Source of the DNA: Diogma glabrata
Lineage: Eukaryota; Arthropoda; Insecta; Diptera; Cylindrotomidae
Length of the DNA stretch: 64,000 nt
Direction: 5' to 3'
Assembly (NCBI GenBank): GCA_963693315.1
Contig: OY856188.1
Span: 252,255,905 to 252,319,904, forward strand
Positions 11,545-62,815 of the stretch are shown piece by piece. Numbering within the stretch: position 1 is the stretch's first letter; each line of letters begins with the position of its first letter. The notes under the pieces were generated by a model, which was given only the letters and a program-made list of their open reading frames with translations, did no database searches and was not told the DNA's origin. A program made the position numbers and the translations under genes.

Positions 11545-11691
11545 TGTTAAGCAAGCTACAGACCTACAATCAATTTGTCAATCAATTGAAAACGAAATAA
11601 AATTTAGGGGATTTTTACCCAAAATTTTATTTCGTTTATTGATCGTTTTCGATTGATTGACAAATTGATTGTATGGTCAGCATGCTTAACA
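11545..11691. mobile_element. 147-bp hairpin MITE
   Basis: The ends TGTTAAGCAAGCT and AGCATGCTTAACA are inverted repeats. The inner arms (11565-11605 and 11627-11673) pair TACAATCAATTTGTCAATCA with its complement and continue inward through the GAAATAAAATTT pairing. Nearly the whole element can fold into one hairpin. No target duplication was confirmed. Confidence 0.65.
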
Positions 11692-15100: not shown

Positions 15101-15513
15101 GTCAAGAAAAACAAAGCTACGAATGTTCAAAGCATGTGTTAAGTCAGTACTGCTGTATCGATGTGAAACATGGAAACAAACACAGAAGATCACAAATAAA
15201 CTTCAGGTGTTTGTGAACAAATACCTAAGAAAATTAATCAAATGCTTCTGGCCAAACACCATCAGTAACGAAGAACTTCTGCGGCAAACTGAGCAGATGG
15301 ACATTGAAACCGATATAAGAAACGAAAGTGGAGATGGATAGGACATACACTGAGAAAACCAGCAGAAGACATAACAAAGATGTCTCTGGAGTGGAACCCG
15401 CAAGGGAAAAGAAGAGTAGGAAGACCAGCAATGAACTGGAAGAAAACGGTGCTAGCCGAAGCAGAGCATATCGGAAAGACATGGAGAGTACTGAAAGCAA
15501 TTGCCCCCAATAG
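12145..15513 (+). pseudogene. RTE endonuclease-reverse transcriptase, broken
   Basis: The endonuclease starts with RIGNWNVRTL (about 12188). A stop follows EILGL, and a deletion near 12500 joins the middle of the domain to its end (DHQLI at about 12620). The linker holds the AGTDNIPAEVFKAD region. The frame is then interrupted by the nested insertion 13399-14159 and resumes exactly with ILTPLLANICSSGKIPDKW. The reverse transcriptase motifs are GFRQGRSCTDHI, FVDFEWAFDTIN, GVRQGCVLYPLLF and LDYADDICLL. The YADD box is intact. A frameshift lies near 14450, between QSIEW and PLYLLFVDF. The C-terminal WKQTQK, RWIGHTLRKP-like and WNPQGKRR segments are spread over frames between 15170 and 15500. The copy cannot make a working protein. 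Confidence 0.85.
13387..14159 (+). mobile_element. Nested 5'-inverted insertion of the I/Jockey-like LINE 3' end
   Basis: ACCACAGCTGAA is duplicated at 13387-13398 and 14148-14159 and brackets a 749-bp insert. The first 85 bp or so (13399-13485) is the conserved LINE 5' block in reverse orientation. The rest is the sense-oriented ORF2 C-terminus: LRTATGYHLM, ILPVREHNEM, then 13762-14115 with a Cys/His knuckle CPICEGTPHDANHLFNCP, ending at a stop (14113-14115). The 3' tail is CTACAACAACAACAAC. This is the structure produced by twin priming during target-primed reverse transcription. Removing the insert and one duplication restores the RTE reading frame. Confidence 0.85.
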
Positions 15514-19152: not shown

Positions 19153-21633
19153 TTAATAAACGTATATTGTCTTAAGTTGGGGTTTCAATTCAGGTGGAAT
19201 ACATGGAGTTGGTTCATGTTTTCTTGTCACTAAACGTTTAAAACGTCCTCCTAATTGTTTTTTGAGGGTTTTTAAACCAGCCTTATCTGCTTGTACTAAT
19301 GCATCCTGTAAAAAGAAAAAAAAAGAAATAAATTTAGTATAAGAGATATTTGATTTAATTTATTTATTTATGGAAACGTTTAACGAAAGATCAAAGAAGG
19401 ATTTACAACTGTGGTCATAAAGGCTGAACATTACTTTGTGATGTCAACGCTATTTCAACGGCAATACCCTCAAACGTATCTTGCTCGAAAATATGTGTTA
19501 TTATGGTTTTTCATATTATTCACTGTTTGTGTGCTTTTGTCACTTTTGAATTAAAATGCAATATTTAAAAATATACTTTTTACTGTTTATTTTTAATTTA
19601 TTATTTTATTAATAATAATATAAACTTCCTTATAATAACAATTTAGAATTTCCAAATTGTTACTATAAGGAAGTTTATATTATTATTAATAAAATAAAAT
19701 TAAAAATAAACAGTAAAAAGTATATTATTAAATATTGCATTTTAATTGCTCGAAAAATCATTCGAAGGAAGAGAGAGCATCACATGAACAATGCATCGGC
19801 CACTAGCTGAATTATTGGCGCCCAATTTTAATTTTGTTGAAAAAATTCGCATTTTTCAAAAATGTTGGTTGGTTGGTCTAGCCTGCATTTTGTATATTTA
19901 AACTTTGATTTTCAATCAATTTGCTACCTTGAAAAACACGATTGAAGCAATCGTTTTACGAATTCTGAAAATAAAATGATGATAACCCTTTACAGTCGTC
20001 GTTTTCATTCTAGCACATACAAATCCATTATTCATTCGTCGCTATTTTGAATAGTTTTAAACTGTAGAATCCATTGATAACAAGCATTGATTATCACAGT
20101 TACAAACTTTAATACAAAAATATAATATAATCTCAAACGATATTTAATTAATACATACATAATATCAATTTACATTTAACCTAAAAACCGTTTTAAACCA
20201 AGTTTGTATTTGTTTTAATTTTTATACAAAAAAATGACCTTAAATAAAATGTAACTATAAAATCTCAATATTAAATAAAAAATTAATAATCACCCTATTT
20301 TTATGTAATCATTGACACACGTAGTTAAGACAAATAGATTTGTTTCTATGCTAATCTATCATTACATTTGATCGTGATGCAGAAATGCCATATAAAAAAC
20401 CACCATGTATTGTGCAACAACAACAATTTCAAAACAAACATGGAGGAGCGTCTGTTTAAATATTGAATACAAACAAAAACATTACCACATTGAGATTTTG
20501 TTGATTAGTCATTAATTCTTACGTTAATTTATATTACAAAATCCATAATTTTACTACATATGTTAATTTTTTTTACATAACGGGACGTGAGATTAAACTG
20601 TTTATGTAATTTTAGGCTGCCCTTAATTCAAAATATCGAATTTTGTTTTATTTACACTACATCGAATAAATATACATACAACAAAAACTTTTTGAATTTA
20701 ACGAGTTCAACGATCAATAAACGAATAATTTGATTCTCATTATCTTTTTTTGTTTCATTCATTATGCAATTTTGAATTTATTTAAGGTGAATTTTTCATG
20801 GTCACAGATAAAAAAAGGATAAACCGGAAATCTATCGCTAGACAGCAATTGTTTTTTGTTTGTTTTAATATACATAAACAAAAAAGGGTCGAAAATTAAG
20901 CGGTTTTTAAAGTTCATCGAACTGTTCTTATTTTTATCGTTTCTCATCTTCTTGAACTTTGTTTTTGTGAATAAAGCAAATATAAAAAAAAAACTATAAC
21001 AAAGAAAAACTAACTCGTTTTTTATAATTACAAAGCGTCCTTATTCTGTTTAAATAAAAACAAAACTTGTTAGCGTCTAAAAATGGCGGTTTAAAATAAA
21101 CTCCGATTGGTCCATTGTTGAAAAAAAGAGATACACCGACAACATTATAGACAGATCTATAACAGCTGTTTGTTAGTCTTAAATTTATGTTGTATGTTTT
21201 TATTTTGATCTTGTATTCGTGTATATATATATAATTTTTTTTAGTTATATTGTTATTTTTTTCTCCTTGGTAACAACTAACAATAAATTTAAAATCATTC
21301 AAGTTTTGTTTTGTGCTATATTTTTTTTACTTTTACGGAATTTGATCTTTCGTTAACGTTCAATATATATAAAAAAAATTTAATTAAATAATAATTATAA
21401 AAAAAACAACTTACTTGACTACTTGCATAGCATAAATTTGGTTGTGGCGGTAATGGTGGGAAGACCCAAACACTTGATGGATTTTGTCGGAAAGCAACTG
21501 GAGCTGTTTGTTGTTCCTGTACTGTTTGTTGTGATTCAACGTTGTTCACTGGGCTTATAGATGATTCTTCACGTTTTCTTAATTTGCTACGAACGAGACG
21601 CATTGTCAGTAATGTACCAGTACTTCCAACCAT
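19153..21633 (-). CDS. Unrecognised 123-aa protein, two exons
   Basis: Exon 1 is 21415-21633 (73 codons, from ATG) and exon 2 is 19153-19305 (50 codons plus TAA). The intron (19306-21414, 2109 bp) has GTAAGT at its donor and TTTTTACAG at its acceptor, in phase 0. The protein has a basic N-terminus (RLVRSKLRKREES), a Gln/Pro-rich middle, a tryptophan-proline motif VWVFPPLPPQPN at about residues 55-66, and a basic C-terminal half with GGRFKRLVTRKHEPTPCIPP. There is no signal peptide, transmembrane helix or catalytic motif that I can identify. The good splice sites, clean frame across the junction and GC contrast with the surroundings support a real gene. I cannot name the family. Confidence 0.65.
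19549..19747. repeat. Near-perfect 199-bp palindrome in the intron of the 123-aa gene
   Basis: AATTAAAATGCAATATTTAA at 19549 is mirrored by the complement ending at 19747. The arms are about 95 bp each with few mismatches and a spacer of under 10 bp around 19650. The centre includes ATAAACTTCCTTATA and its complement. When transcribed in either direction it would form one long hairpin. It may be a recent MITE or an end-to-end inverted duplication. Confidence 0.85.
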
Positions 21634-22411: not shown

Positions 22412-23509
22412 TTATAGTTGTCTTTCAATTAGTAGCGTCATAAAAAAAATTTGTGTAGTTTATTTTGTTTGTTTTTGTTATTAATGAAACTTTATTTGTT
22501 CAAAGAATTAATAGATCTCAATCGACCAAAACAACAATATTTTTCTAGAATAATATATTTATTTATTTATCATGCATTGCAGGTAAATTAATTACATATT
22601 TTCAATTTTTCTATTATTTATGGGTCATGTCATGTGTGGTTATATGAATACAAATTTTAATATTTTTGTGTTCACGAACCCAATAATCAATTCAGGTAGT
22701 TGTTTTTCTGTTTGTTCTGTTTCACCCAAACAGCAGGTGAAAAAAACTTAATAGCAGAATTTTTACGGCCTACGGAGTAACGGCAAGGAAGGACAAGAAG
22801 CTTAATTCTCGTTAGAAATTTTCTTTGTTTAACAAAAATGAAATTAAAATTGTATTTTTGCTATTTTTAACAAGAGCACGATTTAGCTTCGCGTGTGATT
22901 GGAATATATTTATGACATTATTTTAATTCGAATTTTATCGTTTTACTTTGTAAATATAGAGGAAATGAAATATGGATTAGATATTATTATAAATGTTCAA
23001 CGGTTAAATGTTAACCAAAAAGTTCTGGCAATATACAAAGCGACAATTACATGTGACGTCATATCTGACTTTTACTGACGAGGGCAACACCCTGGTCTAA
23101 ACAATATGGCATTCTGTAATTGTTGAATGGATTTCTTTTGGATAACTAAGTTGAGTTGGGACATTAATTACTTCGGTCTGAAAGATTTTTTTTTCTAAAA
23201 ATAGGTTTACTCAATGGGAAGAGCCGAGAGGACGATGTGTTCGATAACTACCGGAAGTATGTCAAAAAAATCGTCAAATGTGTCAAAACAAGGAAAATAG
23301 CATATTTTTGGCTTAAAAAACGTTCATTTTAATTTTTAAGTGATTACGAGTAGGAACATTGATTTTTGAGAAATATTGATGGTCGGGATTGGTATGTGAG
23401 ACCAAAATCTAGATTATTGCATTATAAGTTTGTCAAAAAAAATGTTGTCAAGTGTGTCAAAAAAATGATTTAATTTATTTTTTTAGATAATTTTTTGGAA
23501 AAAAAACTT
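22412..23509. other. Intergenic, nothing recognised
   Basis: AT-rich sequence with no supported gene. At 23255-23470 the phrase GTCAAAAAAATCGTCAA and a near copy recur, which suggests a small diverged duplication. Confidence 0.35.
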
Positions 23510-28662: not shown

Positions 28663-29066
28663 GGGTGCTTTCCAAACGACGACTTATTTGGTACTTATTA
28701 CTTATTTGCCGCCATACTAAAAATGTCAAAAAAATCATTCTAGACAATAATAGGTGCGTTCGATTTGACTGAAACAACTGAAAAAACAACAACAATTGAA
28801 TTTGATTTTTCAGTTGCTTCAGTTGTTTAAGTCAAATCGAACACGGCTAATGTCTATAATTATGTCAGTTTAAATCTGATTTATAAAAACGTGTGATGAA
28901 ATTAGTGACAGATATTAACTAAATTAAATAAAAAGTATATTTGACGTATCAGATTAGATTTTTATGGAAAACGAGATACAAAATAAGTTACCTTGCCAAC
29001 ATACTTATTCGAATAAGTTTAGAATAAGTTACGTTCCACAAATAAGTCGTCGTTTGGAAAGCACCC
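28663..29066. mobile_element. 404-bp TIR element carrying a nested MITE
   Basis: GGGTGCTTTCCAAACGACGA at 28663 is complementary to the end at 29066. The arms run about 45 bp (including AATAAGTCGTCGTTTGG). TTC flanks both ends and may be a 3-bp duplication. The 95-bp MITE copy 2 lies inside at 28753-28847, so this element is older. There is no coding capacity. Confidence 0.75.
28753..28847. mobile_element. 95-bp hairpin MITE, copy 2
   Basis: Same length and almost the same sequence as 22317-22411, with the same GGTGC and ACGGC outer ends and the same TTGACTGAAACAACTGAAAA arm. It is inserted in the 404-bp TIR element. The high identity of two copies 6.4 kb apart points to recent mobility. Confidence 0.85.
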
Positions 29067-32585: not shown

Positions 32586-32848
32586 ATTATTTGTTAGAAT
32601 GTCAAATAAAAAAATAATTTTGACGAATTGCGTGGTATGATTTCAAAAAATTCGGTGTCGTAAATATGTTTGACTTCATAGGACAATGGTACATACGAAA
32701 CCAAGAATAGAGACATTTTAGGTCTAGATTTTATTGAATTTTTATCTGTGTATTTACGAAATCAATAAATATTTTACCATTTTCTGATTTTAGAATTATA
32801 ATTCACTAGACTGAAACTTGAATAGATTTTTGATAGGATTTTTTTAGG

Positions 32849-33379
32849 AAATAATTAATTTCTTAACCTCTCTATTTGTGAAAATCGAAGGTTTAGTAGG
32901 GATATTTTCTATCCAATACAATCCTAAGTCACTTGTGTAGTTATTATTGACTGTTTCCAATAAATCTGAAATCAATTTTACGACATCAGTCAAAGGTTAT
33001 TAGTGAATCATATGAATTTTTCAATTTGAAATCAGTTTTTGGGTTTATATGAATAAACACTACAGTTATTTTTTAATAAAAACAACTTTTATCTCTAAAC
33101 GTGTTTCGGTTCTGATTTGAACTCATAACCTTATCAATATTTTTATTAAAAAATAACTGTAAGGTTTATTCATATAAACCAAAAAACTGATTTCGAATTG
33201 AAAAATTCATATGATTCACTAATAAACTTTGACTGATGTCGTAAAATTGATTTCAAATTGATTGGCAACAGTCAATAATAAGTAATAACTACACAAGTGA
33301 CTTAGGATTGTATGGGATAGAAAATATCCATACTAAACCTTCGATTTTCACAAATAGTGACGTTAAAAAATTAATTATT
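32849..33379. mobile_element. 531-bp foldback element with about 240-bp arms
   Basis: From AATAATTAATTTCTTAACCT (32849) through ATCGAAGGTTTAGTA, GACTGTTTCCAATAA and TATGAATTTTTCAATT, the left arm is mirrored by the right arm (about 33130-33379) with scattered mismatches and small indels. The centre (about 33095-33130) is unpaired. There is no open frame. Nearly the entire element could form one hairpin. Confidence 0.8.
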
Positions 33380-33462
33380 TTGTAAAAAACTCTGAATTGG
33401 CCTGTAAAAAATGATTTACAACACAAGAAGTCGGAAGACGAAATTAATATCTATATAACAAA

Positions 33463-35660: not shown

Positions 35661-36371
35661 GAATTCAACGAGCCAATTTTGTAATGTTCGTATTTTATAT
35701 TAAACAAATATTTTCCGGATAGCTAGAAATACCCGATAAATACCTGAAAAATGAATACATGGATATCGGATATTTATTATTTCAACTACCCGCTGGTAAC
35801 CCTTCCAATAATGAATCGGCATAGTTGATCACTTTTGGGTTAAATTTTGGTAAAAATATTTATGTTCATCTACATACTACTTTCGTTTAACAGGCTACTA
35901 CCAGCTCTGGTGCTCGCCACCAAGTGCTTCTCGTTTGTCGTTGGTGACTTCTAGTAACTGAAATTTATTTCACGCTAAGCATATTGAGAAACCGAATGTA
36001 ATCGTTAAATTTAGGAATCAGACAAAGAATATAAAACTAAAGAACAAAATGAAATTTTACAGGCAGTGAACGATTGCGAGGTAGACCCAGCTACAATTGG
36101 ATACAGACGTAATGAATGTCGCTAAAAATATCGGCTGCCATGATAAATATGCCGCTGCAGCAAATGACCGTGTTTAATATTCGAGGCTGGTTAGCTCGGC
36201 AACGACTTTGCATGGAGTATAAACGCCAAAAAACAAACGTAGTTTTTATTTTTAACCCAGTTGTCACAATTGCGAGTTTATTTCTAGCAACTTTTATTTT
36301 TGATTAAAGATAGTAACATAAAACCTCGAAGTCAGTCAGCAAAATATTGGTTTTCTCAATAAAAAATACCA
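35661..36371. other. Intergenic with a possible LINE C-terminal scrap
   Basis: At 36060-36110 a plus frame reads GSERLRGRPSYNWIQT, close to the GRP--NW motif after the reverse transcriptase in several LINEs. The scrap is too short to classify. Nothing else was recognised. Confidence 0.3.
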
Positions 36372-36479
36372 GCAGCCAAATTCTGTAATTGTGAAGCGGT
36401 GAAGTGATAAGTTTTTTAATGAAAAGAAACGAAGAAATTTTTATTGCTTCACCGCTTCACAGTTACAGAATTTGGCTGC
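36372..36479. mobile_element. 108-bp hairpin MITE with perfect 32-33-bp arms
   Basis: GCAGCCAAATTCTGTAATTG through GTGAAGCGGTGAAG (36372-36404) pairs with 36447-36479 with almost no mismatches. Outside the arms, ATACC and GGTAT are also complementary. The loop is AT-rich. The high arm identity suggests a young copy. Confidence 0.8.
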
Positions 36480-39400
36480 AGGTATCGTATGCAAATCATT
36501 AAAACTTCACAAACATAGCAAAAAAAACTGCTTTCCCTACGTCGCAGTTGGTATCACCATCCATCCCGGCTATGATTTATTAATAAATTGATTAAATTTA
36601 TTACATAATTGTTGTTCAGAAACAAATATGTTTCTCAACAACAATAAAATTGGTTTTAAAAAACATATTTTTTGTCTAGAAACATTTTTAACATGAAATT
36701 AATTTTTATACTGTGTAATGTTTGGATGATGGTAAAAACGGGACAGAAAAGCACCACTTACCATATCTCACGAAGCAAGACTGATAAGCGTTCAACATGT
36801 AAGCTGTATGCTTCAGAAGTAAATAATTGAAGATGTTCATATGGAATATGACTCATGCATGATAACTAGGAACTTGATGAATTTTATAACTTATATATGA
36901 CTAATTATTGGTACGAATAAGTCAAAATAATTTTTGTAGCAATATTATTAATTCAAATTTAAAAAAAAAATTCTCTTTATAGTTGATTTTGAGAAATACA
37001 ATAATTAAAAAAAAATATTACTCAGTTCATATTTCTGGAGATCTGGAATTTATTATCTTATTCTTGTGATTTAATTTGACGCATGTTTGAACTAGTTTTG
37101 ATAAATTTAAGGAATTGTGGGAGTTGCTGACATTTCGGGGAAGATCGCTCAAAAAACGTTTTAAGTTTCGATTATTTTATGAATATTATTTCTAATGTTT
37201 TTTGCCGCCGTTCCTCCCCTTCCTTATCAACCGTCGTGATTGACTTTTGATTACCTGGAAAAACGGAATGTTGATGCTTGTCACGGATTCGCTTTAAACA
37301 CTTTGATCAGATAATTGTCAAACATTTTTGTGAAAAAGAGACACTACCACAGCATTTATCGCATTTTCTTATAAATGAACACACACTGTTTTTGAAATAT
37401 AAAGATAAATTGCGGTTTACATAGTTTGTTTTCTAAATTACTTTGAATTTGTACCCGAATTGTTTGTTTTGTTTGGCGGTAGTAAAGTACTATGTAAAAC
37501 TCGTACAAAATACTAATATCCTTTTGCACGAGCATAACTATTAATGCCTGATGTACAATATTTTTATTTATTTTATACCTTTTTGTCTTTGAATATTTTG
37601 GAATCAATTAACTATTCGAAGACCATTAATTTTTTTTATTTTTTTATTGCAGAATCTTCATTTTTCTCAAATAAACTGTGTTGTATATACAAGGAATTAC
37701 AATATGAGTCAAACCAGCACATCAAAACCTTTAAAGTCCTAGGTCCCACAACAAAATGCGTTCAGAAGTGGGACGATAGTTTGTTTGCTACTTTTGTTTC
37801 GTTTTTTTATGTCGTTTTTAAAGGAATGGAGAGCTAAAAAATAAATCTTATCAGATAATTAAATATTGCACGGGCCAATATTTTTATGATAGGCGTGAAG
37901 ACATAAAATTAAAATTAAACCGTATTTTTTTTAAATTTACAGGAAGAAAACTAAATTTAGGTTGCCAGTAATCATGTGACGCACGTATATTCGAGCAAGG
38001 AATAGCACGCCACCATTAAGCAATATTCCATAACTAAGATTGAGGATATTACCGTTGACTGAATAGAGGTCATCCGCACCATTAAGATATCACATTGGGG
38101 ATCAGAGCAATATCGCCAGTGGTATATGATATCCTATGTTTACTCATACGTCAATAGCAGGGACTGAAGAACACGAGGTTGTTACAGTCACCACCCGAGA
38201 TTAACAAATTAGAAAAATCTACAAATAAAAAAATCCCGCCAAGTTGATCACATCGCAGTGTTGATTAAGGTTTTTACCTAAAACTATTGAGACGGGTATT
38301 GTTATTTTAAACCAAATAATCTATAAAATTTGAAACCAAAAAATTTTTGGGAAGTTACTGAAAAATGGAATACTAGATTTTATCACAAAAAATAGTGAAA
38401 CCAAGGTAAATAAAAGCGAATAGAAATACGAAAACATCTTGAAATGTTTCTATCGTCAAAATGAATTCTCTCTAAATTTTTGCAAGGTAAAGATTTAAGT
38501 TACTTTCATATTTTATATTATTTCCTAACCAATTGAATAAAATTATGGTAGATATGTGAAATGTATACTTGTATGTCTACTACATCTTTTACAAATAACA
38601 CTTTGTCCTATTTTATTAGTATCAAACTCATTTTAAAACTATTTACATATTATCATACAACAATACAAACACCCTCACAATGGTTGCCAATGCCAACTAA
38701 AATAAATATATAAAATTAAAATTATACACATTTTAATCTTTTACATATACATTTATTTTCTTTCGTTTAACTGACTATAAGTCTAAAGTTCGTTAAAGCA
38801 TCAGGGAATATATCTCTTTACGTTCAGACATATTGTATCGCCCTTACATTTATACCCTAAATAAATACAAAAATATATAGAAAAAAATTATTTGTTGAAA
38901 TAAAACTAAAATTCAATAGAAAATACATAATCACATCTTTTCTGGTTAATTGTAATTGAAATTATTTCAAATCTCATTCGATAGGTTGGCTTCACTTGAT
39001 GGCAGTTATTGGGTAAAGAACGTTCGATATTGAATTCATCCCACAATCCGGTTAGCAATTTTACGTTTTAATAATTATGATGCGGAGTGTATGCACTATG
39101 CACACTTAAAATAAAACCATGTTAAAGTCTAGATCTATTTTTAAGTAACTTTCATATTCTACAAATAAAATAAAATTATTTCTACAATCGTAACAGTAAA
39201 TATTGAACATAGTAGAATAAACAAGTAATTGAATTGAATAAATTTGTATTAAAACATAATATATTCATAATATTAATTATCTCAAATTATAAATTAAACA
39301 TGTCAACATTTATCGATAGTATAATTTTATTGGAATTCAATAAATAGTATAATTGATCCTATAATCACCTATATTGCTATTTCACCAGATGTTCATTGTT

Positions 39401-42990: not shown

Positions 42991-44654
42991 TAAGATTGCA
43001 TAGGATAAACCAGAACTGGTGCAGATCATAATCTTAACTGAAGTTCCATAATCGCGCATCGTTTTGCTTTTCGGTCTATTCAAATGCTTTATCTTTTCTT
43101 GGAAGCTTATGTAGGTTCTTAGCAATATAATCAAATTCTGGTATAAAACTTCGGTGTTGTACAATCATTGAAAACTGCAAAGCTCTGATAAATCTTTTAA
43201 CTTTAACATACAACAAACTATAGAAGTTTTTATCTTTAATAGAACCGAATTTATGAATATTTAAAAATAGCTCGACTAGCCAAAAAACACGAAATTCTCG
43301 ATATTTGGAACCGCTATATTTGCCAAAAAAAAAATCCTTGAACACGTATATATCGAGTAATCCTTGAATACGTATATCTTTTTATTCGTAGTAAATTTAA
43401 ATTTAAATTCGTAGTAAATATCAATGCGTTAGAAATTTTCACGATTTTCACATGACAAAAATATTTGTTAAAAATTTTAAGGGTAGCTTTCTCCCTTAGT
43501 TTTAATTTTTAAAAAATTTAAAATCGATTCTCCGATTATTTTAAATTTATTTCAAAATATACACTTTCAATTAATTCTTACCGCGTAATGGTAGTAGTAT
43601 CGATGTGAGTGCTAGAGGGCACTGTAGGCAAAAAAAACACAGTTTTCACGCAATTTTAAAACTTTATGATTTTTTTTCTCGGAAATATCAGCTTGTAAGC
43701 AAATTTTGTATGTGACAATTTTGACTTAAAATTTTTACGTAAATCACTTCTTATTAGCATGGGTCGCGTTAAACCTTGATCCGTCTCATTTGCTAATCAT
43801 TTTGCACGTTCCGCATTCCGCTGACACTTGAACGATTATTTAAAAGCCAAAGTGTATAAGCATATAAAATTTGGAGAAAAAAAACGTGCAAAGTTCATTG
43901 AACCAGAAGTAAGAAGCATTATGAACGAACAACAAGTCTGTAAGTGACACCATTCGTTATAGGTATTGCATCTCATTGATTCCGAGTTGTCAATATTAAT
44001 TACTTTACTCTGAAGATTGGGTCGATTCTGCTTCAGTAATTTCAAGAAGAGTAAATTACTATGTCTTAAAAGTTTACTATTTCTAAAGGTGTCTAAAGTT
44101 TACTGTTCCTTCACCCGGTTTACGCAATTTGTAAACTTTACATGCACGAAAACATATTTCATCTTCCAAATCAGAATAAAAAAACCAATAAATTCAATAC
44201 ATTTGTCTTGTTTTCGAATTCATATCACATCTCCAAAAGAAAAAACTATAAATTAACAACCTAGTAATAGTTTTAGTGTGGTAAATAAGACACTAGGTTT
44301 GATTATAGTATATACTAGCATGAATCCAGCAAACTTTGGTTTTTGTGCATACCAAACATAGCAAACACTCAAAAACAAAACAATTCGATGTTTATTTTTT
44401 AGCAAGCTAGTAAAGTAAAGTTTCGAATACTTTTTTATGCATACGAAAACTAGTAAACACTTAAAAAACCTAGTTACTAGGTTTTATACATATGGCCCAT
44501 TGTTCACTGAATATTATTTGCTCAATATTTTTGTGCCTGATGATGAGTTTTTATGATCGAAACGCGTCAAAGTATTTTTGTTTTGAAAATTGGCTTTGTA
44601 AATAAATTATTCAAATTTTAAATGTCCGACTACTTGGAAACTAAGGAAATATTT

Positions 44655-44935
44655 TTGGAGAAGTATAGCACAATTCTTTTTTAATTTCTTTCTTTTTTGT
44701 CTACTTTCGATTAAATTTTGTCTCATAATGGGTGTCAGCCAGGAACTGGCCCAAAAAATCTTACAAAATGAGAAAATACGTTAAAACCACTTTTTCACGT
44801 TTGAGTGATTTTTGGTCATTTTAGTCATTTTAGTTCCTGTTTGACGCCCATTATGAGACAAAAATTAATCGAAAGTTGACAGAAAAAAAAGAAGAAACTA
44901 AAAAAAAATTGAAAAATTGAAATACTTCTCGAAAT
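44655..44935. mobile_element. About 280-bp foldback MITE
   Basis: CTTTCGATTAAATTTTGTCT and CATAATGGGTGTCAGCCAGGAACT (left) are mirrored by AGTTCCTGTTTGACGCCCATTATGAG and the complement of the rest (right, to about 44882). Weaker pairing extends outward to CTTCTC-like ends. The centre is about 44765-44825. There is no coding sequence. Confidence 0.7.
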
Positions 44936-52758: not shown

Positions 52759-53004
52759 AGCAAAAATTATAGCATCGTCATTGTTGATTGTACTGAATAG
52801 CATCGCCATTGTTAAATTTTATAGTTGTAATTTCAAAGTTGAAAGCTGAGTTCAAAGATTAAATTGATCAAAATTTGATCGTCAACACAATCATCACCAA
52901 ATATAATATTTAAAGCTTTTTATTCTTATAAGAATCCATGTTTTTATTATGTTTAAATTTAATAAAAATCAACAAAAGAATAATTAATTTTTTCAATGTT
53001 TATC

Positions 53005-53111
53005 TGTCAAAAATTATAGCACAACGATTTCTAGGTTATATAAATTTCTTTCTCTTTTTAACTACCAAAAATTTTATATCGCGTGTAGGTCTAACTTTCA
53101 GTAAAAAAAAA
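53005..53111 (+). repeat. Direct repeat flanking the palindrome cluster, left copy
   Basis: Phrases TGTCAAAAATTATAG, TTCTCTTTTTAACTA, AAAATTTTATATC-CGTGTA and TCTAACTTTCAGTAAAA occur here in this order and again at 54487-54597. The repeat probably extends further left, because CATCGCCATTGTT occurs at 52800 and again at 54314. Confidence 0.75.
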
Positions 53112-53175: not shown

Positions 53176-53184
53176 CAGAAATAG

Positions 53185-54165
53185 TTATTTGTTTAACTAG
53201 GAAGCAAAGTAGTAGATTGACTGCCGCGGCTGATAGTTCATAGCCGAGCGAAGCGAGGGTAGGAATTCAGCCAAGGCAGTCAATCTACTTTGCTGCCGAG
53301 TTGAACATATAATTTTTCACCGATTAATTACAATGATATGTAATTTAATAATTATTACTTTAAAAATAAAGCAAAATTTTAAAAATGAAAAAAAAAATCG
53401 CAATCGTTGGAAGGATTAGTTGTTATGGAAATGTCATAATAATTATAGATTGACAAATTAAAAAATTTCTGCCAGATTCGTAGAAAAATATCTGTTATTT
53501 TTATGAAGTCTAATTATTTTGCTGCCTAGGCAGCAAAGTACTTACTTTGCTGCCTAGGCAGGAAAAGTGCCACTTTGCTGACTGAAATAAGTCTGCAAAA
53601 TTTATATTTGCTGTCAATCGGAGAAAATAGTATATTATTGAATTAGGAGCTAAAGTCGTACTTTTTGTGTTGAGTCTATAGTTTGGCGGCCGACCGTAGG
53701 GAGGCCGACAATTATAGACGAAACACAAAAAGTCACTTTAGCTCCGAATTCAATACACTATTTTTTCGGCAAACGTTTAAATTTGTTTAAAAATATGAAA
53801 TTAATGCATCAAATTTTTTAAAAATATGTTTTATGTAATAAATTTTCTGAAATTAATTTTTTTTTATTTTTATTCATTAAAATGAACTGAAATACATTCT
53901 GTTTTGAACAAATTAATAATATCATTTTATTTTACTTTACTGCCGCCGTAAAAATATGAAAATTACTTTACAGCCGCCGTAAAAATATGAAAATTACTTT
54001 ACAGCCGCCGTAAAAATATGGAAGTTACTTTACAGCCGCCGGCAGAAAAAGTAAAAATGACGTCACTTTTGCAGCCGCCGGCTAAAAAGTAAGACTTTAG
54101 CTACTCCCCAGCGGCAGTAAAGTTAAACTTTACAGCCGTTAGCCGAAAAACACTATTTTACGGGA
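53185..54165. repeat. GC-rich palindrome and tandem-repeat cluster, function unknown
   Basis: In order: hairpin A at 53191-53308, with arms of about 45 bp (AAGTAGTAGATTGACTGCC against GGCAGTCAATCTACTT) and an inner loop holding GCCGAGCGAAGCGAGGG; a perfect 20-bp palindrome at 53518-53537 (TTTGCTGCCTAGGCAGCAAA) followed by a near copy; hairpin B at 53631-53758, with arms of about 55 bp (GGAGCTAAAGTCGTACTTTT against AGTCACTTTAGCTCC) and an inner loop holding GCCGACCGTAGGGAGGC; a 31-bp tandem repeat at 53933-54040 containing ACTTTACAGCCGCCGTAAAA; and further GCCGCCGGC and TTTAC palindromes to 54165. No open frame runs through the cluster. GC islands of this kind are absent elsewhere in the window. 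Confidence 0.8.
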
Positions 54166-54486
54166 ACATTAATTATTTTATTAGAAAAAAAATTAAGTTT
54201 TTGCTTGTCGAAGTGTTTTTTTAAATTAAAAATATTTAGTTATAATATTTTATCAAAATTTTAGTATTCTTTTGTATTATTTTTGTTTTTTGTGTCGGAT
54301 GTTAAAAATTTATAACATCGCCATTGTTGATTACAGTTCCAAAGATTAAAAATTATCGGTAGGTATTTTATTTATTTACTAATTTATTTATTTATAGAAT
54401 GATGGCAAACAGGCGTCTGCCATTTATTGTAATTGCTCAGTAATAAACAATATATTAATGGTTTTTTCATAATTTTAATTTTTGGA

Positions 54487-54597
54487 TGTCAAAAATTATA
54501 GTATATAGCGCTTCTATATTATAAATTTCGTTCTCTTTTTAACTATTAAAAATTTTATATCACGTGTAACTCTAATCTAACTTTCAGTAAAAAAATG
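54487..54597 (+). repeat. Direct repeat flanking the palindrome cluster, right copy
   Basis: See the left copy at 53005-53111. Order and spacing of the shared phrases agree, with perhaps one substitution in five. The two copies start 1.48 kb apart and lie on the same strand. Confidence 0.75.
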
Positions 54598-56690
54598 CTT
54601 GTAAAAATTTGGGAACTTGTAAATCGCCTATAAGAATCTTTTTTTGTACGTCAAAATAATTTTCGATCCGTATATATTTCTTCTATTGACGCTTTGATTA
54701 TTAACGTCACGTCACTAGCAATTCAGTTTTGGTTTTTATCGTTATTACTGTGACGATAGTGATTACAACTAAAATTTAAAATGCAAAACCAAAATTAGCG
54801 TTATCAGAAATAACCCCATAAATATGGAATAAAAACTCAAAACCAACCAAATGAGATTCTCGCAAGCCGCGTAACAGGTGCATATTGTATCTGAATTCTG
54901 CATCACTCATTCATATTTTAAAATATTATTTATGTATCTATCTATTATAACCTTTCCTTAAATCATCTGCGATGCCGTTTTGACGTTAGATACAAAATCT
55001 TATTTGCATGATTAACCGCTTTTTCGTCATTGAATTTTCTGAACAAATATTTTACAAACTTGGAAAAAATGGAAAATCATTTATTATTACTATTATTGTA
55101 ATGAAATTGTTCACTTACTTTAATTCGATTGTGAAAAAGTAAAATTCTACTCACCAAAATGTTTACTCATGAAAAAAGACAATGTTTTCATCTCTTGTAG
55201 GAAAATATACTATTATAAGTTAAACTTATTTGGTTAGAAATTTTTTTATAAAAAATGTCCGTTAGCTTGTATAGCAATAAAAAATTTTTACAATTCGTGT
55301 TTTATGTAATTATTTTTATTTTTATTAAGTAAATACTTAATCTTTGATAGGAGGTCTGGCATTGTACAGTGGATTAGAAAGATGCGTGAAAAATATTATT
55401 TATATTAAATTTTATGTAAAAAAATTTTCGTTCAACCCCATTTTAGTTTCGTTTACGCAAATTTTTAAAACAAATTTGCTTTTTATCGTTTATTTTATTT
55501 TTATTTTCTCTATCCTATCATTAAATATTACGGCCTACGAAATTATAGTGATTCGTGTTTTGATGTCAAATCTCGATCACCCACAATATCAAAGAGTTTT
55601 TGGTATTGCCAATATATCGTCGTTTGAAATTATGACGTTCAATAAACGAATTCCTTTACATTGACCTATTTATTTGTTCTTTAAACATACTAATTGAAAT
55701 GTCGTTGGAGCACTTTCAATTTTCGATCTTTAAATAATCAACACTCAATAGCTGTGTTTTGTTGGATGGCGTTTCTCTTGAAAGAATTTATTTGTCCGTA
55801 CATTTTACCGTTTAAAGATAGGAAACGATTTGATTTTATAAAATTATTTGTTTGAGGATAAAAGGTTATGTATTATTAGAACAATAAGAGCATAGACTAA
55901 TCACTAAACACACTGTCTCTAGATGGATGACCAGATATTGTCAAGAATTTTGATAAAAAGATAAGATAAAATAAAAAAAAATTTCAAGGAACAGAATGCC
56001 GTAAACTATGTAAGCTTTGATCAAACTGAAAATCAAATGATATCATCGCAATTAAAATTATATTCTTACAATGTCTATGATGTTCTACTTCAATGTTTTT
56101 ATTCAATTCATAATAGTTATTTAAGTATTAAGGGCAGTAAGAGTGCTTTGCCGATTGAGGATATATGTTTTGAGATCGAGACGAAGTCGAGATCTCTAAT
56201 ATATCCGAAATCGGTAAAACTCTTAATGCCCAAAATGCTTATTACATTTTTTGCACGATCAATAAAAATTCAATTAAAATTAATTAAATAATAAAATTCA
56301 TTTTTAAGAGTGTATATAACATTTATGAAATCAAAGATTTACGTCGGATTTTAAAATATATTACAGAATAAACGTTCCTGCATCGATTGGAATCAAAAAA
56401 TTTAGATCTCACCGACAGTTTTCGCGAAATAATTAATTTCAAAGTTTTCATTCATTCTATGTTATATTCGGTGGAAGTACCAAAATTTGTTAGAAAAATC
56501 AAAAATTCAGAATGTTCTTGCAAAGACACCCGAAAAAAAAACTTACGTTCAGTTTCTCTGTGCGATTTATGATTTATGAGCCCAAAAAACAGCGGTGTCA
56601 CCGGCAATCAGACGCAAATATTTAATTTAAAAATTTATAAAATCTGTTGCATACACCGGAAAGCTGACCGCCATTTGCAGAAAGAAAATC
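54598..56690. other. Intergenic, unsupported open frames only
   Basis: The frame at 55344-55664 starts after an acceptor-like TTGATAG and is partly hydrophobic, but it matches no family that I know and no partner exon was found. The frame at 56037-56291 is similarly isolated. Confidence 0.3.
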
Positions 56691-56860
56691 TGGCAACGTT
56701 GTGTGTGTTGGTCAAAGAGAAGTAAGTCTTTTTTCATCGTTCGTGTTCATAATAAGATATCGTGACAATCAAATTTTAAAATAAAATAATAAATATATTT
56801 ATTTATTCCTATTTTAAAATAATAAATATATTTGACTGACTGCGACGTTGCCAGATCTAC
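56691..56860. repeat. Inverted repeat, possible small transposon
   Basis: AAAATCTGGCAACGTTG (56692) pairs with CGACGTTGCCAGATCT (ending about 56860). The interior contains an AT-rich direct duplication ATTTTAAAATAATAAATATA. A GAGAAGTAAGTC phrase near 56720 looks like a splice donor, but no exon is supported. Confidence 0.45.
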
Positions 56861-57145
56861 TTTTCCATATAGTAGTTGCAATCAAATTAGAGACACATAT
56901 TTTTTAGTACTATGAAATTATATAATATTTTGGAAATATTCTATCATAAACAATTGTTGTAATTGATAAAAAGCATTCGTGAATTGAAATTTTTACATAA
57001 TAATTTGTTTGTTTGTTTGAAATTTTATTAGATGTACTACGCAATTTGACTATCTATACATCCTTAAGTTTGAATATTTTAAAGAAAATTTCTTAAAATC
57101 TCATTTCGAAATAGTAAGCTCTGCGTTTCATCATAATTCTATAAG

Positions 57146-57395
57146 TTTTTTTTTCTACACCCGTACTATAAAAATACACTTATATGACCAAAATCCGTTT
57201 TATAATGATATTCATTTCGATACAGATTTTATTACGATACAGATTTTTAATCAATAGAAAGAAACCCATAGCTTTTCAATCAAACATGCTATGCATTTGA
57301 CGTTTGTTGAAATTTTCGTATGGGAAAAAATTGAACTTTGAAATTTGAAAATTAAAATTTTCGTTCTTCGTTATTTACCGGGTGTAGAAAAAATA
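57146..57395. mobile_element. 250-bp element with CTACACCCG termini
   Basis: TTTTTTTTCTACACCCG (57147-57163) and CGGGTGTAGAAAAAA (57379-57393) are inverted repeats. The interior is not strongly self-complementary. No duplication was confirmed. Confidence 0.5.
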
Positions 57396-57584
57396 GCGTA
57401 TGCTATTCTCATGTAATGGTTGTTAATACATGATCGTAGCATAATATGCTATTGTTGCAGAACTAACTTTCATCGAATATTTTTTAAAGTTGAAGTTATT
57501 ATTTAAAATTGAAGCTAGTATATGTAAGTTGACCTGCAAATTTATTTTTAAAAAAATTGCTTTTATTCATACCCTGGGCTCTAC

Positions 57585-57655
57585 TTTACAGGTAAGTAAT
57601 TATTTACCGCCTACATGATCGGTAAGTAATTACTTACCGACCTGTGATTTGTAAA
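57585..57655. repeat. Nested short palindromes GGTAAGTAATTACTTACC
   Basis: ACAGGTAAGTAATTATTTACCG and CGGTAAGTAATTACTTACCG are each palindromic, and the outer ACAGGT and ACCTGT pair with each other. The palindromes contain perfect GTAAGT splice-donor strings on both strands, which could mislead gene finders. Confidence 0.6.
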
Positions 57656-60109
57656 CGAAACTTACTATGTTTATTTACGAATCAGCAAACATGCAAAATC
57701 GCCTGATCGTGCAAAAATGTATTTGAATACCAATAATCTCTATTTAGTCCTTCAAGTTTGTATTTTTAATAAGAAAAGGATTTTATGTGACTATGGCATA
57801 ACTGTCTTGATTTCATTATATTCGAAATACATAAGTAATAAATATTGAAAGAATACCATTTTTTTTCATTAGTTCGCATATGAAGAATAGAAGAGCCTTT
57901 TCATAAACATATATTTTTTCACAACAAAAAATAATTTGTCTGTTCTTTACCTGTTTGTTCGGTTTGATTTTATGATTTAATTTACGGAACAAGATCAAGA
58001 ACATTTCTTTTGCAGTGTTGTCTGCTTTTAAAGTAGAATTTAATAATAAACGACAGCATTGGTTTGACTTAAGTCAGACAAAGAGCGAATTTAAATAATT
58101 TTTAGCGGAAATAGTTTCATTAGCTCATATATATTAACAATCATTTAAGATTTGTGGATTGCCACCAATGTTAAACCATCAGAAAGCTCTCTAGCTATAC
58201 TACAGTCAACTTATTAAGTTCTCAATTCTCTATCCAAATAACCAGACAGTAATAATATAATTTTTTATAATTGATCATATAAACACATTTTTTTTATCCA
58301 CTTTCAAAACGAAAGTTATTTTGATAGAACTTATATTCCTCTCGTTCTCTCTGCATTCAAAGATTGTGATTTCTTTAAAATTATTAAGTTTTGGCGACAG
58401 CCGACAACACGCATTCATAACATGACTTAAGTTTTTATTGAAAGTATTAGTTAGTAACTGACTTTTTAATCTTTTTTTTTTTTTGAAGGAAGTCCCCGAC
58501 ATTTTTCAATATAACTTTAACGTTATATTTTGTATTAAGAAAAAAAAAACGTAAATGACTAATATAATGTTTCGTAATTATTTTTTCATTACCGAAAAAT
58601 TAAAGTTTATCAAGAAAAAAATCAGTTTCTTTGGATTTTATAAAAGAAACTTTTACAACTTAATGTTCATTTATTTATTGTTTTAATTTAAAAAGTAGGT
58701 TGAACAGTAAAAAAATGGCGAAAATAAATGAAATGATGAATTTCACTTTAATGATTTTTAATCAATTTTAAAAATGTAATAGTAATTTAAATGAAGTAAT
58801 AACTATGTTAAACGTTTAGGTTATTAAAGTTAGTTTTTTGTTCGCTTGCAATTGTTTCAAGTTAATGCATTCATTTGTATTCATGGTAAACAAGAAATAT
58901 TTTCATGTATATATTGGTATAAAAATCGATCAATTCGATCAACGAAAACGTTTGCTATTAACATTTCGTATAAAATTTACGTTATTTATAAATAAAATGA
59001 CTATTTATATTTAATATTGTATTTTCGTCTAAACAAACGAAAAATGTTATCACAAAACCGGAAACTTATATTTTTATAATGAAACCAAAGAATCTTGCAA
59101 TCAATCATAATCTTGTGTCCGTAATCTTTTGTGAAAGTTGTTTTATACAATCTATCTATTTCATATTGGAATGGTTTTAATATTGACTACTGAACCTGAC
59201 ACATTGTCCACTACTCCCCTACTATATTGATATTTTCTGTTCTTTTTTTCAAATATGTCCGGTAAATATCGTTAGTTAACTAAAACCAAAAGTTACCCCA
59301 TATTATCGAATATTATACCACCAAACTGAAAGAAAATGTCAATTAACTACGATAATCTATTTAAAACTATTGGTAAATAAATACTTCCTAGTTCATAATT
59401 AAGTCTAGAGTAATTAACCACAAAATACAGTCGATTCAATAAAACAAAAATATTTTACTATGTTATCAATGGCAAGCAAACTAATTTAACTGATTTATGT
59501 AAGAAATGAGTGTGTAGATATGTAACTTTATTATATTTATAATTTATTGTGATAAATACAATATATGATATTAATTATAAAAGCATATTTTAAGAACAAG
59601 GTTAACGCGGTTGGTTTTAATGAATTACATTTACGGTTTCCTGTAATAATAAATTTACAATAGCTATAAAATTATTAAGAAATAGTTCATAACTCATAAT
59701 TTTAATTGGGATTGGTTCAGAAAGCAAAACGCTAGTGTGGATAAATTGGCCTTAAAACTTCACAACAAACAAGAATTTTATGTAATGCGTAGCTAGCTCC
59801 TCAAATAATAGAATAATTTAACGACCATTCGAGCATTGTAAATTATTGTGAATTTGTGTCTAGTTGTGAAGGTGTATCTAGTTCAAGCTTGCACAAGTGT
59901 GCAAGCCCTCTGTGTACAAGTGTGTCCTCTGATCGCGATAAAGTGTCCGGAACGACAATGCTTTCACATTTGAAGTACCTAATGTTCGCGGTATATTTTG
60001 ATATGTAGTCTAATTGATAACTTTGACGAGGACTGTGTTCTTACTTTAACGAAATAACAGTTGTGAGTTATTTGTGATTAGTATTTATATGAAAGTCTTT
60101 ACCCTCTAT
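57656..60109. other. Gene-free AT-rich stretch
   Basis: No supported coding sequence. A perfect short hairpin GCTTGCACAAGTGTGCAAGC lies at about 59886-59905. Everything else is unremarkable. Confidence 0.35.
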
Positions 60110-60650: not shown

Positions 60651-60734
60651 TTGTCAGGCTTAATCCTGCGTACATAACTGACGATCTAAAGATAATAGTT
60701 CCGACAGCAAATCCAGTTAAATCAATGAATTCAA

Positions 60735-60875
60735 ATTTTAAACACCATCTGGATGAGGAGCAAAATCTGCAGGGTGAGTGATATAGTGTTAATAAAATAA
60801 AATATAACGTAAAGCCACACTATATCACTCACCAGAAAGATGTTGCTTCTTATCCAGACGGTGATTAAAATTTGA
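60735..60875. repeat. Hairpin between the Gypsy pieces
   Basis: CACCATCTGGATGAGGAGCA and GGGTGAGTGATATAGTG (left) pair with CACTATATCACTCACC and GCTTCTTATCCAGACGGTG (right). The outer AAATTTTAAACACC and AAAATTTGAACG also partly pair. It probably is a MITE inserted between, or responsible for separating, the Gypsy fragments. Confidence 0.65.
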
Positions 60876-60959
60876 ACGTCTGTCTTGTACGGAGGTTTAA
60901 GTCTGTCGATGATGATCGATTGTGAGAACATAAACATTTTGTAAGTTCTTTGAAAACAT

Positions 60960-61190: not shown

Positions 61191-61759
61191 CTAGTGAATT
61201 ATGAATCAAAAAATGAAACAGAATTTTAAGATGACAGTGGTCGTTTTATAAAGTTAAAAATATAAAGAAAATTAAAATATTTAATTTAAAATATATAAAT
61301 AAAATAACAACAACAAGTACAATAATATTCAAGCAACAAATTTTAATTATTAATTTATTTTATGATACTTTTATGATATTTTATGATCCAAATTCCAAAC
61401 AATCCATAAGAAATTTATTACATAAATATAAAATTTGAAACTTATTATTAAAGTTTAATTAGTTTTTAGTTTAAAATACGCTGTAATTCCTGCCTGTCAA
61501 ACCAATATAAAATTTGTTACAAGAATCCAGTTTTATGTAAACTATCTTTTGTACGTTCTTTAAATTTAGGTTTATTTTTCGATTGAAAATTTATAACTAT
61601 AATGCTGTTATTATAATTTTAATATAATTTTAATTTATTCTGGAACATTGAGTGATGTATAGGAATCAAATGTTTTAGAGAATACGAATTTGAAAAGGTT
61701 TTGTATTAGTAATATCAGATATTTGAAATGATTAAAAAGTTTCAATATTCCAATATTTT
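61191..61759. other. Intergenic, nothing recognised
   Basis: AT-rich, no gene or repeat recognised. Confidence 0.35.
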
Positions 61760-62607
61760 AATATTTCTATATTTCTATATTTCTATATTTCTATATTTCG
61801 ATATTTCTATATTTCTATATTTCTATATTTCTATATTTCTATATTTCTATATTTCTATATTTCTATATTTCTATATTTCTATATTTCTATATTTCTATAT
61901 TTCTATATTTCTATATTTCTATATTTCTATATTTCTATATTTCTATATTTCTATATTTCTATATTTCTATATTTCTATATTTCTATATTTCTATATTTCT
62001 ATATTTCTATATTTCTATATTTCTATATTTCTATATTTCTGTATTTCTATATTTCTATATTTCTATATTTCTATATTTCTATAATTCTATATTTCTATAT
62101 TTCTATAATTCTATATTTCTATAATTCTATATTTCTATATTTCTATATTTCTATATTTCTATATTTCTATATTTCTATTGTTCTATATTTCTATATTTCT
62201 ATATTTCTATATTTCTATATTTCTATATTTCTATATTTCTATATTTCTATATTTCTATATTTCTATATTTCTATATTTCTATATTTCTATATTTCTATAT
62301 TTCTATATTTCTATATTTCTATATTTCTATATTTCTATATTTCTGTATTTCTATATTTCTATATTTCTATATTTCTATATTTCTATATTTCTATATTTCT
62401 ATATTTCTATATTTCTATATTTCTATATTTCTATATTTCTATATTTCTATATTTCTATATTTCTATATTTCTATATTTCTATATTTCTATATTTCTATAT
62501 TTCTATATTTCTATATTTCTATATTTCTATATTTCTATATTTCTATATTTCTATATTTCTATATTTCTGTATTTCTATATTTCTATATTTCTATATTTCT
62601 ATATTTC
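61760..62607 (+). repeat. (CTATATTT)n microsatellite, about 105 units
   Basis: An 8-bp unit repeats with few interruptions (TTTCG at about 61798, TTCTGT at 62039, 62343 and 62568, AATTC at 62082-62125, TTGTTC at 62178). Because 8 is not a multiple of 3, the array is open in a frame that cycles through an 8-residue peptide (YFYISIFL). Those open frames are artefacts. Confidence 0.95.
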
Positions 62608-62815
62608 AATATTTCAATATTTCAATATGTCAATATTTCAATATTTCAATATTTTAGTATTTAAATATTTCAATATTTCAATATTTCAATATTTCAATAT
62701 TTCAATATTTCAATATTTCAATATTTCAATATTTCAATATTTCAATATTTTAATATTTCAATATTTCAATATTGCAATATTTCAAAATTTTAATTTTCAG
62801 TATTTCAATATTTCA
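62608..62815 (+). repeat. (CAATATTT)n microsatellite, about 23 units
   Basis: The unit changes at about 62607 from CTATATTT to CAATATTT by a single base and continues with the same 8-bp period to about 62790, then degrades. The change occurs once, so the two arrays look like an expansion from two variants of one ancestral unit. Confidence 0.9.

What the first reader, a model, noticed from the sequence alone, without database searches (positions are those of the whole stretch)
53185..54165. Two large palindromes whose loops carry GNA mini-hairpins with a compensating base change
Hairpins A (53191-53308) and B (53631-53758) have unrelated arms, yet their inner loops share GCCGASCGWAGSGAGG. The two S positions change together, G with C in A and C with G in B, so the inner pairing is kept. 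The inner hairpins are GCGAAGC and CCGTAGG, of the C(GNA)G type. d(GCGAAGC) is known as an exceptionally stable DNA mini-hairpin. Compensating change suggests that the folded form matters for a terminal structure, a recombination site or a protein-binding site of an unidentified element. This is the least explained structure in the window.
Basis: partly seen in the sequence, partly recalled or inferred. Interest (0 to 1): 0.8.

Follow-up and report, generated by a model that had tools for sequence, protein, structure and literature searches.

The report
Hairpin-ended Crypton-type transposons in an insect
The two palindromes are the left ends of small jumping genes of a kind moved by a tyrosine recombinase, and ten families in this insect genome keep the same hairpin shape although their inner sequences differ, which suggests that the enzyme reads a folded DNA strand much as bacterial integrons do.

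Summary
Hairpins A and B are the left termini of two short elements joined head to tail: A = 53180-53625, B = 53626-54147. The motif occurs 839 times in the host assembly, the reversed-pattern control 0 times. A 1.63-kb relative sharing both ends of A carries a degenerate tyrosine recombinase (YR) of insect Crypton type; it is not a Helitron. Upstream of YR genes of other families lie hairpins of the same build but different inner sequence. In 11 rows (10 families, chosen for an intact tip) the tip GA-stem-c(GNA or GNNA)g-stem-GA starts at nt 66-67 from the element end in 10 and nt 62 in one. Extra left-arm bases near nt 29-35 and an irregularity near nt 46-49 recur. Arms pair well only within a row. 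The rule exposed a third, unreported element, K (56112-57714). Empty sites show exact insertion before AAA. In dimers the right end completes the palindrome, so the crossover lies in one arm, as in integron attC sites. Best reading: a folded-hairpin recombination site of a eukaryotic YR transposon. The identity is firm for A; the single-strand mechanism is inferred. No experiment; one genome.

The parts
53180..53625 (+). Element A, 446 bp, non-autonomous derivative of a YR (Crypton-type) element; starts AATAGT, ends CGGAGAA
   Evidence: Boundaries from copies with different flanks; 95% identical to nt 1-324 and 84% (138 columns) to the last 125 nt of the YR element in L347
53180..53318 (+). 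Terminal hairpin A
53244..53258 (+). Tip of hairpin A: CC-GA-GC-GAA-GC-GA-GG
53313..53325 (+). Box just inside hairpin A, inverse complement of the right end (the window copy TTTTTCACCGATT differs from the form TTTTTTCTCCGATT seen in most other A copies)
53616..53625 (+). Right-end box of A (AATCGGAGAA), which completes the palindrome in a circle or dimer
53626..54147 (+). Element B, 522 bp, no gene, same architecture, joined head to tail to A
   Evidence: 16 full-length rows (repeat fetches of one place not removed) mean 99.3% identical to it
53626..53763 (+). Terminal hairpin B
53690..53704 (+). Tip of hairpin B: CC-GA-CC-GTA-GG-GA-GG
53761..53775 (+). Box just inside hairpin B (TTTTTTCGGCAAACG), inverse complement of the right end
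54137..54147 (+). Right-end box of B (CGTTAGCCGAA)
54148..54157 (+). Host target half-site AAACACTATT (consensus AAA[A/C]NNNNT)
   Evidence: empty sites of other insertions
56112..57714 (+). Element K, 1603 bp, third hairpin-ended element, found by the structural rule; right end ...TGATCGTGCAA located by complementarity to the box inside its hairpin; no YR detected
56112..56251 (+). Terminal hairpin K, tip ATC-GA-GAC-GAA-GTC-GA-GAT with GA at nt 67

Best explanation
A and B are the hairpin-bearing left ends of two short, gene-less, YR-dependent transposons (Crypton type), inserted head to tail; K is a third of the same build. Shown: the hairpin starts at the element's first bases; one member of A's family carries a broken YR gene; the hairpin's shape is conserved over families whose inner sequences differ; the other end of A and of B is the inverse complement of the box just inside the hairpin; insertion is exact, without duplication, before AAAM(N4)T. 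Inferred: that B and K use the same kind of enzyme; that the YR excises the element as a circle, whose junction rebuilds one large palindrome; that one strand of it folds (when single-stranded during replication, or by cruciform extrusion) and the YR recognises the folded stem by its bulges and spacer, exchanging strands in the arm near the base, with a host half-site as partner; that the tandem G.A plus c(GNA)g or c(GNNA)g tip nucleates and locks the fold on one strand and so sets polarity. This would be an integron-attC-like site in a eukaryotic transposon.
For: Terminal position: 46 of 47 distinct copies begin AATAGT or AATAAT where flanks diverge (one TATAGT). YR partner: the L347 element, about 1.63 kb, shares both ends with window A (95% over 325 columns, 84% over 138) and holds YR-like frames. 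YR exons of three other families match Phage_integrase (6.9e-07 over the cut-off; 6.2e-06 and 4.6e-04 below it). Fold model of an insect homologue (P0012): XerH, Cre, XerA, Tn1549 Int, an integron integrase. A hairpin 5' of the YR gene in 16 of 20 fetched upstream stretches. Geometry in 11 rows chosen for an intact tip: tip at nt 66-67 in 10 (the start of L351 was set by eye), nt 62 in I364; left-arm-only extra bases near nt 29-35 and an irregularity near nt 46-49 in 11 of 11 and in K; left-side excess near nt 53-58 in 10 of 11 (not C) and K. Arms: native -38.8 kcal/mol and 48.6 pairs on average; arms swapped between families -12.2 (n=108, best -18.6); right arm shuffled -9.9 (best -19.3). Five pairs outside the tip, 7 rows whose letters no search pattern fixed: 30 of 35 cells Watson-Crick, dealt-out mean 15.4, max 25, 0 of 10000 reach it; with A, B, C and K 50 of 55 (8 of those cells were fixed by the patterns). 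Loop-closing C-G in 7 of 7 rows where it was not fixed by a search. Right-end boxes of A and B, defined by flanks, match the inner box at 10 of 11. Empty sites: L287, L321, L305. Test of the rule: element K. Loops GTCA, GATA, GCTA are not GNRA, so they fit DNA better than RNA rules (d(cGNNAg) recalled); C-G closing of a d(GCA) loop is worth about 1.9 kcal/mol (PMC5815330 passages).
Against: No single-strand step, circle or recombination was observed. DNA folding energies hardly differ between strands: + lower in 10 of 11, in 6 by under 2 kcal/mol, and - lower in J365. The energy model draws the GA/GA tip in 7 of 11 rows and K; in B, C, F356 and I364 it opens or shifts it. 4 of 20 upstream stretches had no hairpin and 5 more hairpins lacked the tip. 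Right ends of E and G were found only by looking for the inverse complement, and in 3 of 5 families tried (L369-L371) none was found. B and K have no YR-coding relative identified. The YR is not closer to the integron integrase than to Xer or Cre in the fold search (2a3v rank 35). Target position 4 of K is T, against the A/C rule. Only one genome; no relative found in viral or prokaryotic collections.
Confidence: 0.6

Rival explanations
1. The hairpin is a duplex-DNA palindrome: an array of ordinary YR binding sites in inverted order, never used folded.
For: Outer 20 nt are partly conserved in sequence (70% vs 53% shuffled), as expected of a binding site. Ordinary YRs bind inverted 11-13 bp repeats (PMC3212892 passages).
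Against: Inner arms keep pairing but little sequence (55% vs 47% shuffled), and the left-arm-only extra bases and G.A tip stay at fixed distances; these features exist only in a folded strand.
Confidence: 0.17
2. The structure works in RNA: 5' leader of the YR messenger or a source of dsRNA.
For: It lies upstream of the YR start in the sense orientation. GAA-type tips and the GAAA loop of L352 would also suit RNA.
Against: In 34 of 47 copies examined the right end lies 355-531 bp from the left, so they keep the hairpin without the gene, which points to a need in cis for movement; loops GTCA, GATA, GCTA break the RNA GNRA rule.
Confidence: 0.08
3. Helentron/HINE: rolling-circle elements with inner inverted repeats, a 3' stem-loop and T-rich targets.
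For: Anatomy agrees closely: subterminal inverted repeat, terminal stem-loop, internal tandem repeats, T-rich flank (PMC4067079 passages). Helitron_like_N matches are abundant in this genome (150 scored of 1385 candidates).
Against: The full-size relative of A encodes a YR, and hairpins of the same build lie upstream of YR genes of other families.
Confidence: 0.04
4. Neutral process: template switching keeps correcting palindrome arms, so pairing needs no function.
For: The window holds other large palindromes without this tip, so palindromes are common here.
Against: Such correction would erase the G.A mismatches and bulges that are instead conserved at fixed positions.
Confidence: 0.08

Closest known systems
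CryptonI / CryptonA transposons (Kojima and Jurka 2011, PMC3212892; passages and section 8 read)
   Same: Short element with a YR gene and no other domain, insect hosts, abundant non-autonomous derivatives, circular intermediate proposed.
   Different: That paper reports no terminal repeats in animal Cryptons and its main text holds neither 'hairpin' nor 'palindrom'; here a terminal hairpin, inverted boxes and a target half-site are found.
Integron attC sites (PMC2727003, passages read)
   Same: Site conserved in fold rather than sequence; extrahelical bases, an unpaired central spacer and a variable terminal structure. Crossover in one arm near the base, so that integration splits the palindrome (recalled).
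   Different: About 140 nt, conserved tip, carried by a transposon with its own YR in an animal; single-strand use not shown.
Helentrons / HINEs / DINE-1 (PMC4067079, passages read)
   Same: Subterminal inverted repeats, terminal stem-loop, T-rich targets, internal tandem repeats.
   Different: YR instead of Rep/helicase; stem-loop several times longer and structurally constrained.
Strand-biased circularizing elements (SE) of Vibrio (PMC9345347, passages read)
   Same: YR element; one strand is copied into a circle; T-rich crossover region.
   Different: Bacterial, two integrases, no such hairpin mentioned in the passages seen.
d(GCGAAGC)-type GNA mini-hairpins (PMC6479982 and PMC5815330, passages read)
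   Same: c(GNA)g loops at the tips of A, B, C, F, J and K.
   Different: Here embedded in a 140-nt terminal hairpin with flanking tandem G.A; other families use c(GNNA)g.

Membership tests
Crypton (animal type) | Tyrosine recombinase with R, K, H-x-x-R, H/W, Y | tested here: met
   K, H, R, W, Y invariant over 14 sequences incl. two families of this genome; the first R invariant over 29 homologues (roles of the residues recalled). Pfam PF00589. A's own relative L347 is broken; its H-x-x-R and Y motifs were read by eye from the DNA.
Crypton (animal type) | Short element with YR as only gene | tested here: met
   L347 element about 1.63 kb; within it only frames belonging to the YR reach 60 aa. 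Other families were not measured end to end beyond the spans.
Crypton (animal type) | No terminal inverted repeats (as described in 2011) | tested here: not met
   Right ends of A and B, defined by flanks, are inverse complements of the box inside the hairpin (10 of 11 each). E, G and K agree at 11 of 11 but were located by that complementarity; L369-L371 gave none. This extends the published description.
Crypton (animal type) | 4-6 bp terminal direct repeats (fungal and oomycete groups) | tested here: not met
   Only shared As at the junction; empty sites.
Non-autonomous derivative of a YR element | Shares both ends with a coding element | tested here: met
   A only. B and K: by architecture alone, no coding partner found.
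Helentron / HINE | Rep/helicase-encoding partner | tested here: not met
   Partner of A encodes YR; not tested for B and K.
Integron attC-like site | Fold conserved, sequence not | tested here: met
   Arm swap and dealt-out tests; the outer 20 nt are partly conserved in sequence.
Integron attC-like site | One-sided extrahelical bases and unpaired spacer | tested here: met
   Near nt 29-35 left arm and nt 46-49 in 12 of 12 predicted folds incl. K; in F356 and F357 the latter is a single bulged G. Prediction only.
Integron attC-like site | Crossover within one arm of the palindrome | tested here: met
   Dimer junctions and empty sites place it between the right-end box and AATAGT, up to shared As.
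Integron attC-like site | Recombination of one folded strand | not testable with these tools
   Needs biochemistry.
Integron | IntI-type integrase | tested here: inconclusive
   Fold search ranks Xer and Cre above the integron integrase 2a3v (rank 35); the IntI-specific insertion was not examined.

The most novel reading that the evidence does not exclude
Insects carry a large group of tyrosine-recombinase transposons that move through a folded single-strand attachment hairpin with a conserved structural code (one-sided bulges, spacer, tandem G.A plus c(GNA/GNNA)g tip): a eukaryotic counterpart of integron attC recombination, probably copy-out, which would explain the high copy numbers.
Probability: 0.5. 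Interest if true: 0.92.

Novelty: new variant of a known kind. Interest (0 to 1): 0.82.

Why it matters
How animal Cryptons recognise their ends and multiply has been open, since no terminal repeats were found in them (PMC3212892, section 8). A structure-coded end gives a testable site, a way to find Crypton ends by rule (it found K), and possibly the first eukaryotic case of folded-strand YR recombination, with use as a genome tool. The listings of my searches showed no report of hairpins in Cryptons; most subscription papers and all preprints are outside that library.

Tried and rejected
Rfam (gathering threshold) and tRNA scans of the window: nothing. Plasmid similarity: nothing. Helentron reading: held for a while, dropped when L291/L347 showed a YR. 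Alignment of the tips: MAFFT misaligned them, so pairs were counted by script. YR relatives in viral and prokaryotic contigs: none. Genome-wide empty-site search with L332 flanks and a GNNA tip count: not completed. L313's right end is a false call (an inverted neighbour) and is the one exception at target position 9. The 11 rows were chosen for an intact tip (one mismatch in F356). Not used: L348, L349, L350, L354, L355 (hairpin, tip damaged or absent; by arm sequence sister copies of families that are used), L353, L362, L366, L367 (no hairpin at the end), L352, L358, L360 (sisters with tip). F356 was left out of pair counts as a sister of F357. In one search the start of G359 was set 2 nt too early and that of L351 by eye; one search corrects the counts.

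Full report
Observation. Both hairpins are real: folded as DNA they reach -39.5 and -45.6 kcal/mol (z -10.9 and -13.3). The 16-nt motif occurs exactly twice in the window (expected 0.07 at up to 3 mismatches). Read as a fold it is CC-GA-S-C-(GWA)-G-S'-GA-GG: a GNA loop, two pairs, a GA/GA tandem mismatch, and outer pairs.

Host genome. The window lies in a 1.33-Gb assembly. GCCGASCGWAGSGAGG occurs 839 times, the reversed pattern 0; the 100 places listed (one contig) are all paired. With N at the two S positions there are 1614 matches, again 0 for the control; of the 100 listed, 91 are Watson-Crick (C-G 75, G-C 12, A-T 2, T-A 2) and 9 are not. Most listed copies share one of a few tip sequences, so these are not 91 independent events.

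Element boundaries. The 47 distinct copies examined were all fetched by this motif; each has it at the inner end of the long hairpin, and flanks diverge just before AATAGT (46 of 47 AATAGT or AATAAT; one TATAGT). Right ends are GCCGAA (B, B') or CGGAGAA / CAGAGAA (A). B is 522 bp in most copies (also 416 and 425); B' 523-531 (also 491, 501); A 445-450 (also 355, 418, 420). In 34 of 47 the right end lies 355-531 bp from the left, leaving no room for the gene. Six head-to-tail junctions were seen: L286, L290, L303, L318, L333 and the window itself. So the window holds A (53180-53625) and B (53626-54147) in one dimer.

Target. Over 35 right junctions the host begins AAA (35, 34, 35 of 35), then A or C (35 of 35), and T at position 9 (34 of 35; the exception, L313, is a false right end). 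The left flank is weakly conserved, n=42. Joined flanks of L287, L321 and L305 match paralogues with no base added or lost at the junction (L302, L309; L326, L346, window 23179-23506; within a run of As for L305); L323 matches with a gap. There is no duplication beyond shared As. Types A and B sit at the same site of one repeat in L321 and L287.

Partner. L291, extended as L347, is an element of about 1.63 kb with A's hairpin at the left and A's end at the right: 95% identical to window A over 325 columns and 84% over 138. Between them are broken frames of a tyrosine recombinase; GHCLRR and KRHGGWKS...GYIED I read by eye from the DNA printed. An 88-aa piece finds 2959 first-look candidates in the genome; the 150 scored are 49-100% identical. 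YR exons of three other families match Phage_integrase, one above the cut-off. 226 relatives (120 listed) include beetle and wasp proteins. The homologue P0012 models as a Xer/Cre-like YR (pLDDT 83.8). This excludes a Helentron for A, although the anatomy resembles HINEs and Helitron genes abound here.

Hairpin code. I fetched 550-650 bp upstream of the YR in 20 copies. Sixteen show a hairpin at the left end (L354 in part); eleven of these have the tip intact or with one mismatch (L351, L352, L356-L361, L363-L365), five lack it, and four stretches show no hairpin. One or two rows per family with A, B and C give 11 rows, 10 families. The rows were chosen for the tip, so its presence is no test; its position, the outer pairs and the bulges are. 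The tip starts at nt 67 (8 rows, L351 with a start set by eye), 66 (2) or 62 (1). Predicted folds show left-arm-only extra bases near nt 29-35 and an irregularity near nt 46-49 in all 11, and a left-side excess near nt 53-58 in all but C (G359 numbers there are 2 too high). The energy model draws the GA/GA tip in 7 of the 11. Arms from different families do not pair: -12.2 against -38.8 kcal/mol (108 swaps). In the 7 rows whose letters no search pattern fixed, the five pairs outside the tip are Watson-Crick in 30 of 35 cells, against a dealt-out mean of 15.4 and maximum of 25 (10000 trials).

Prediction. A generic tip scan of the window gave a third hit at 56178 (simulations mean 0.04). It lies at nt 67 from an AATAGT at 56112, in a hairpin with left-only bulges at nt 34 and 55 and a GA/GA loop at nt 46. 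The box inside that hairpin predicts the right end; ATCGTGC was sought in 56112-59000 and found once, in TGATCGTGCAAAAA, a 14-nt match to the prediction, placing the end at 57714. The host then reads AAATGTATTT: position 4 is T, unlike the A/C rule. No YR was detected in K. Of 226 AATAGT-like starts on both strands only A, B and K (plus B read backwards and an overlap of A) pass the fold filter.

Mechanism. The right-end box is the inverse complement of the box just inside the hairpin: 10 of 11 in A and in B, whose right ends are fixed by flanks. E, G and K give 11 of 11 but were located by this complementarity, and L369-L371 gave none (cross-family mean 7.0, maximum 10). In a circle or dimer the palindrome is therefore completed, and the crossover lies in its left arm near the base. 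One-sided extra bases, spacer and variable inner stem are features listed for integron attC (PMC2727003 passages); the split arm of attC is recalled. Gene-less copies keep the hairpin, so it acts in cis. Loops GTCA, GATA and GCTA obey the DNA rule c(GNNA)g (recalled) and not RNA GNRA; GAAA in L352 fits both. I infer a folded single strand as substrate; no result here shows single-strand chemistry, and strand energies barely differ.

Wider motif. Generic GNA tips are more often intergenic (95 of 182, crude ORF caller) than other loop classes (5 of 31, 2 of 28, 1 of 19), but these loci were fetched by the motif itself. So the mini-hairpin recurs elsewhere, with no link to YRs shown.

Noticed in passing
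L001-L284 (viral contigs), e.g. L254:3568-3782, L103:245-2970: The same GA-NC-GNA-GN-GA mini-hairpin recurs, about half of it intergenic and with paired changes, in phage-like contigs. Of ten nearby proteins tested, three match terminase large and one small subunit families. Unexplained.
   Followed up: partly
window 32837-33392, 19549-19747, 44654-44934, 11545-11691, 60730-60876, 36366-36485, 28734-28863: Other large palindromes without the tip, scoring above all of 5 simulated sequences; not identified.
   Followed up: no
window 53932-54041 and 53514-53580: 31-bp tandem repeats inside B and stacked CTTTGCTGCC/GGCAGCAAAG palindromes inside A; role unknown.
   Followed up: no
window 52991-53109 and 54473-54595: 78% direct repeats on either side of the A-B dimer, host repeat of unknown kind.
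   Followed up: no
window 12605-15216: Broken non-LTR-like retroelement with reverse transcriptase matches.
   Followed up: no
window 61740-62814: About 134 copies of an 8-bp repeat TTTCTATA.
   Followed up: no
own genome: Helitron_like_N: 1385 first-look candidates, 150 scored, all 150 over the cut-off, some in open frames of about 1500 aa.
   Followed up: no
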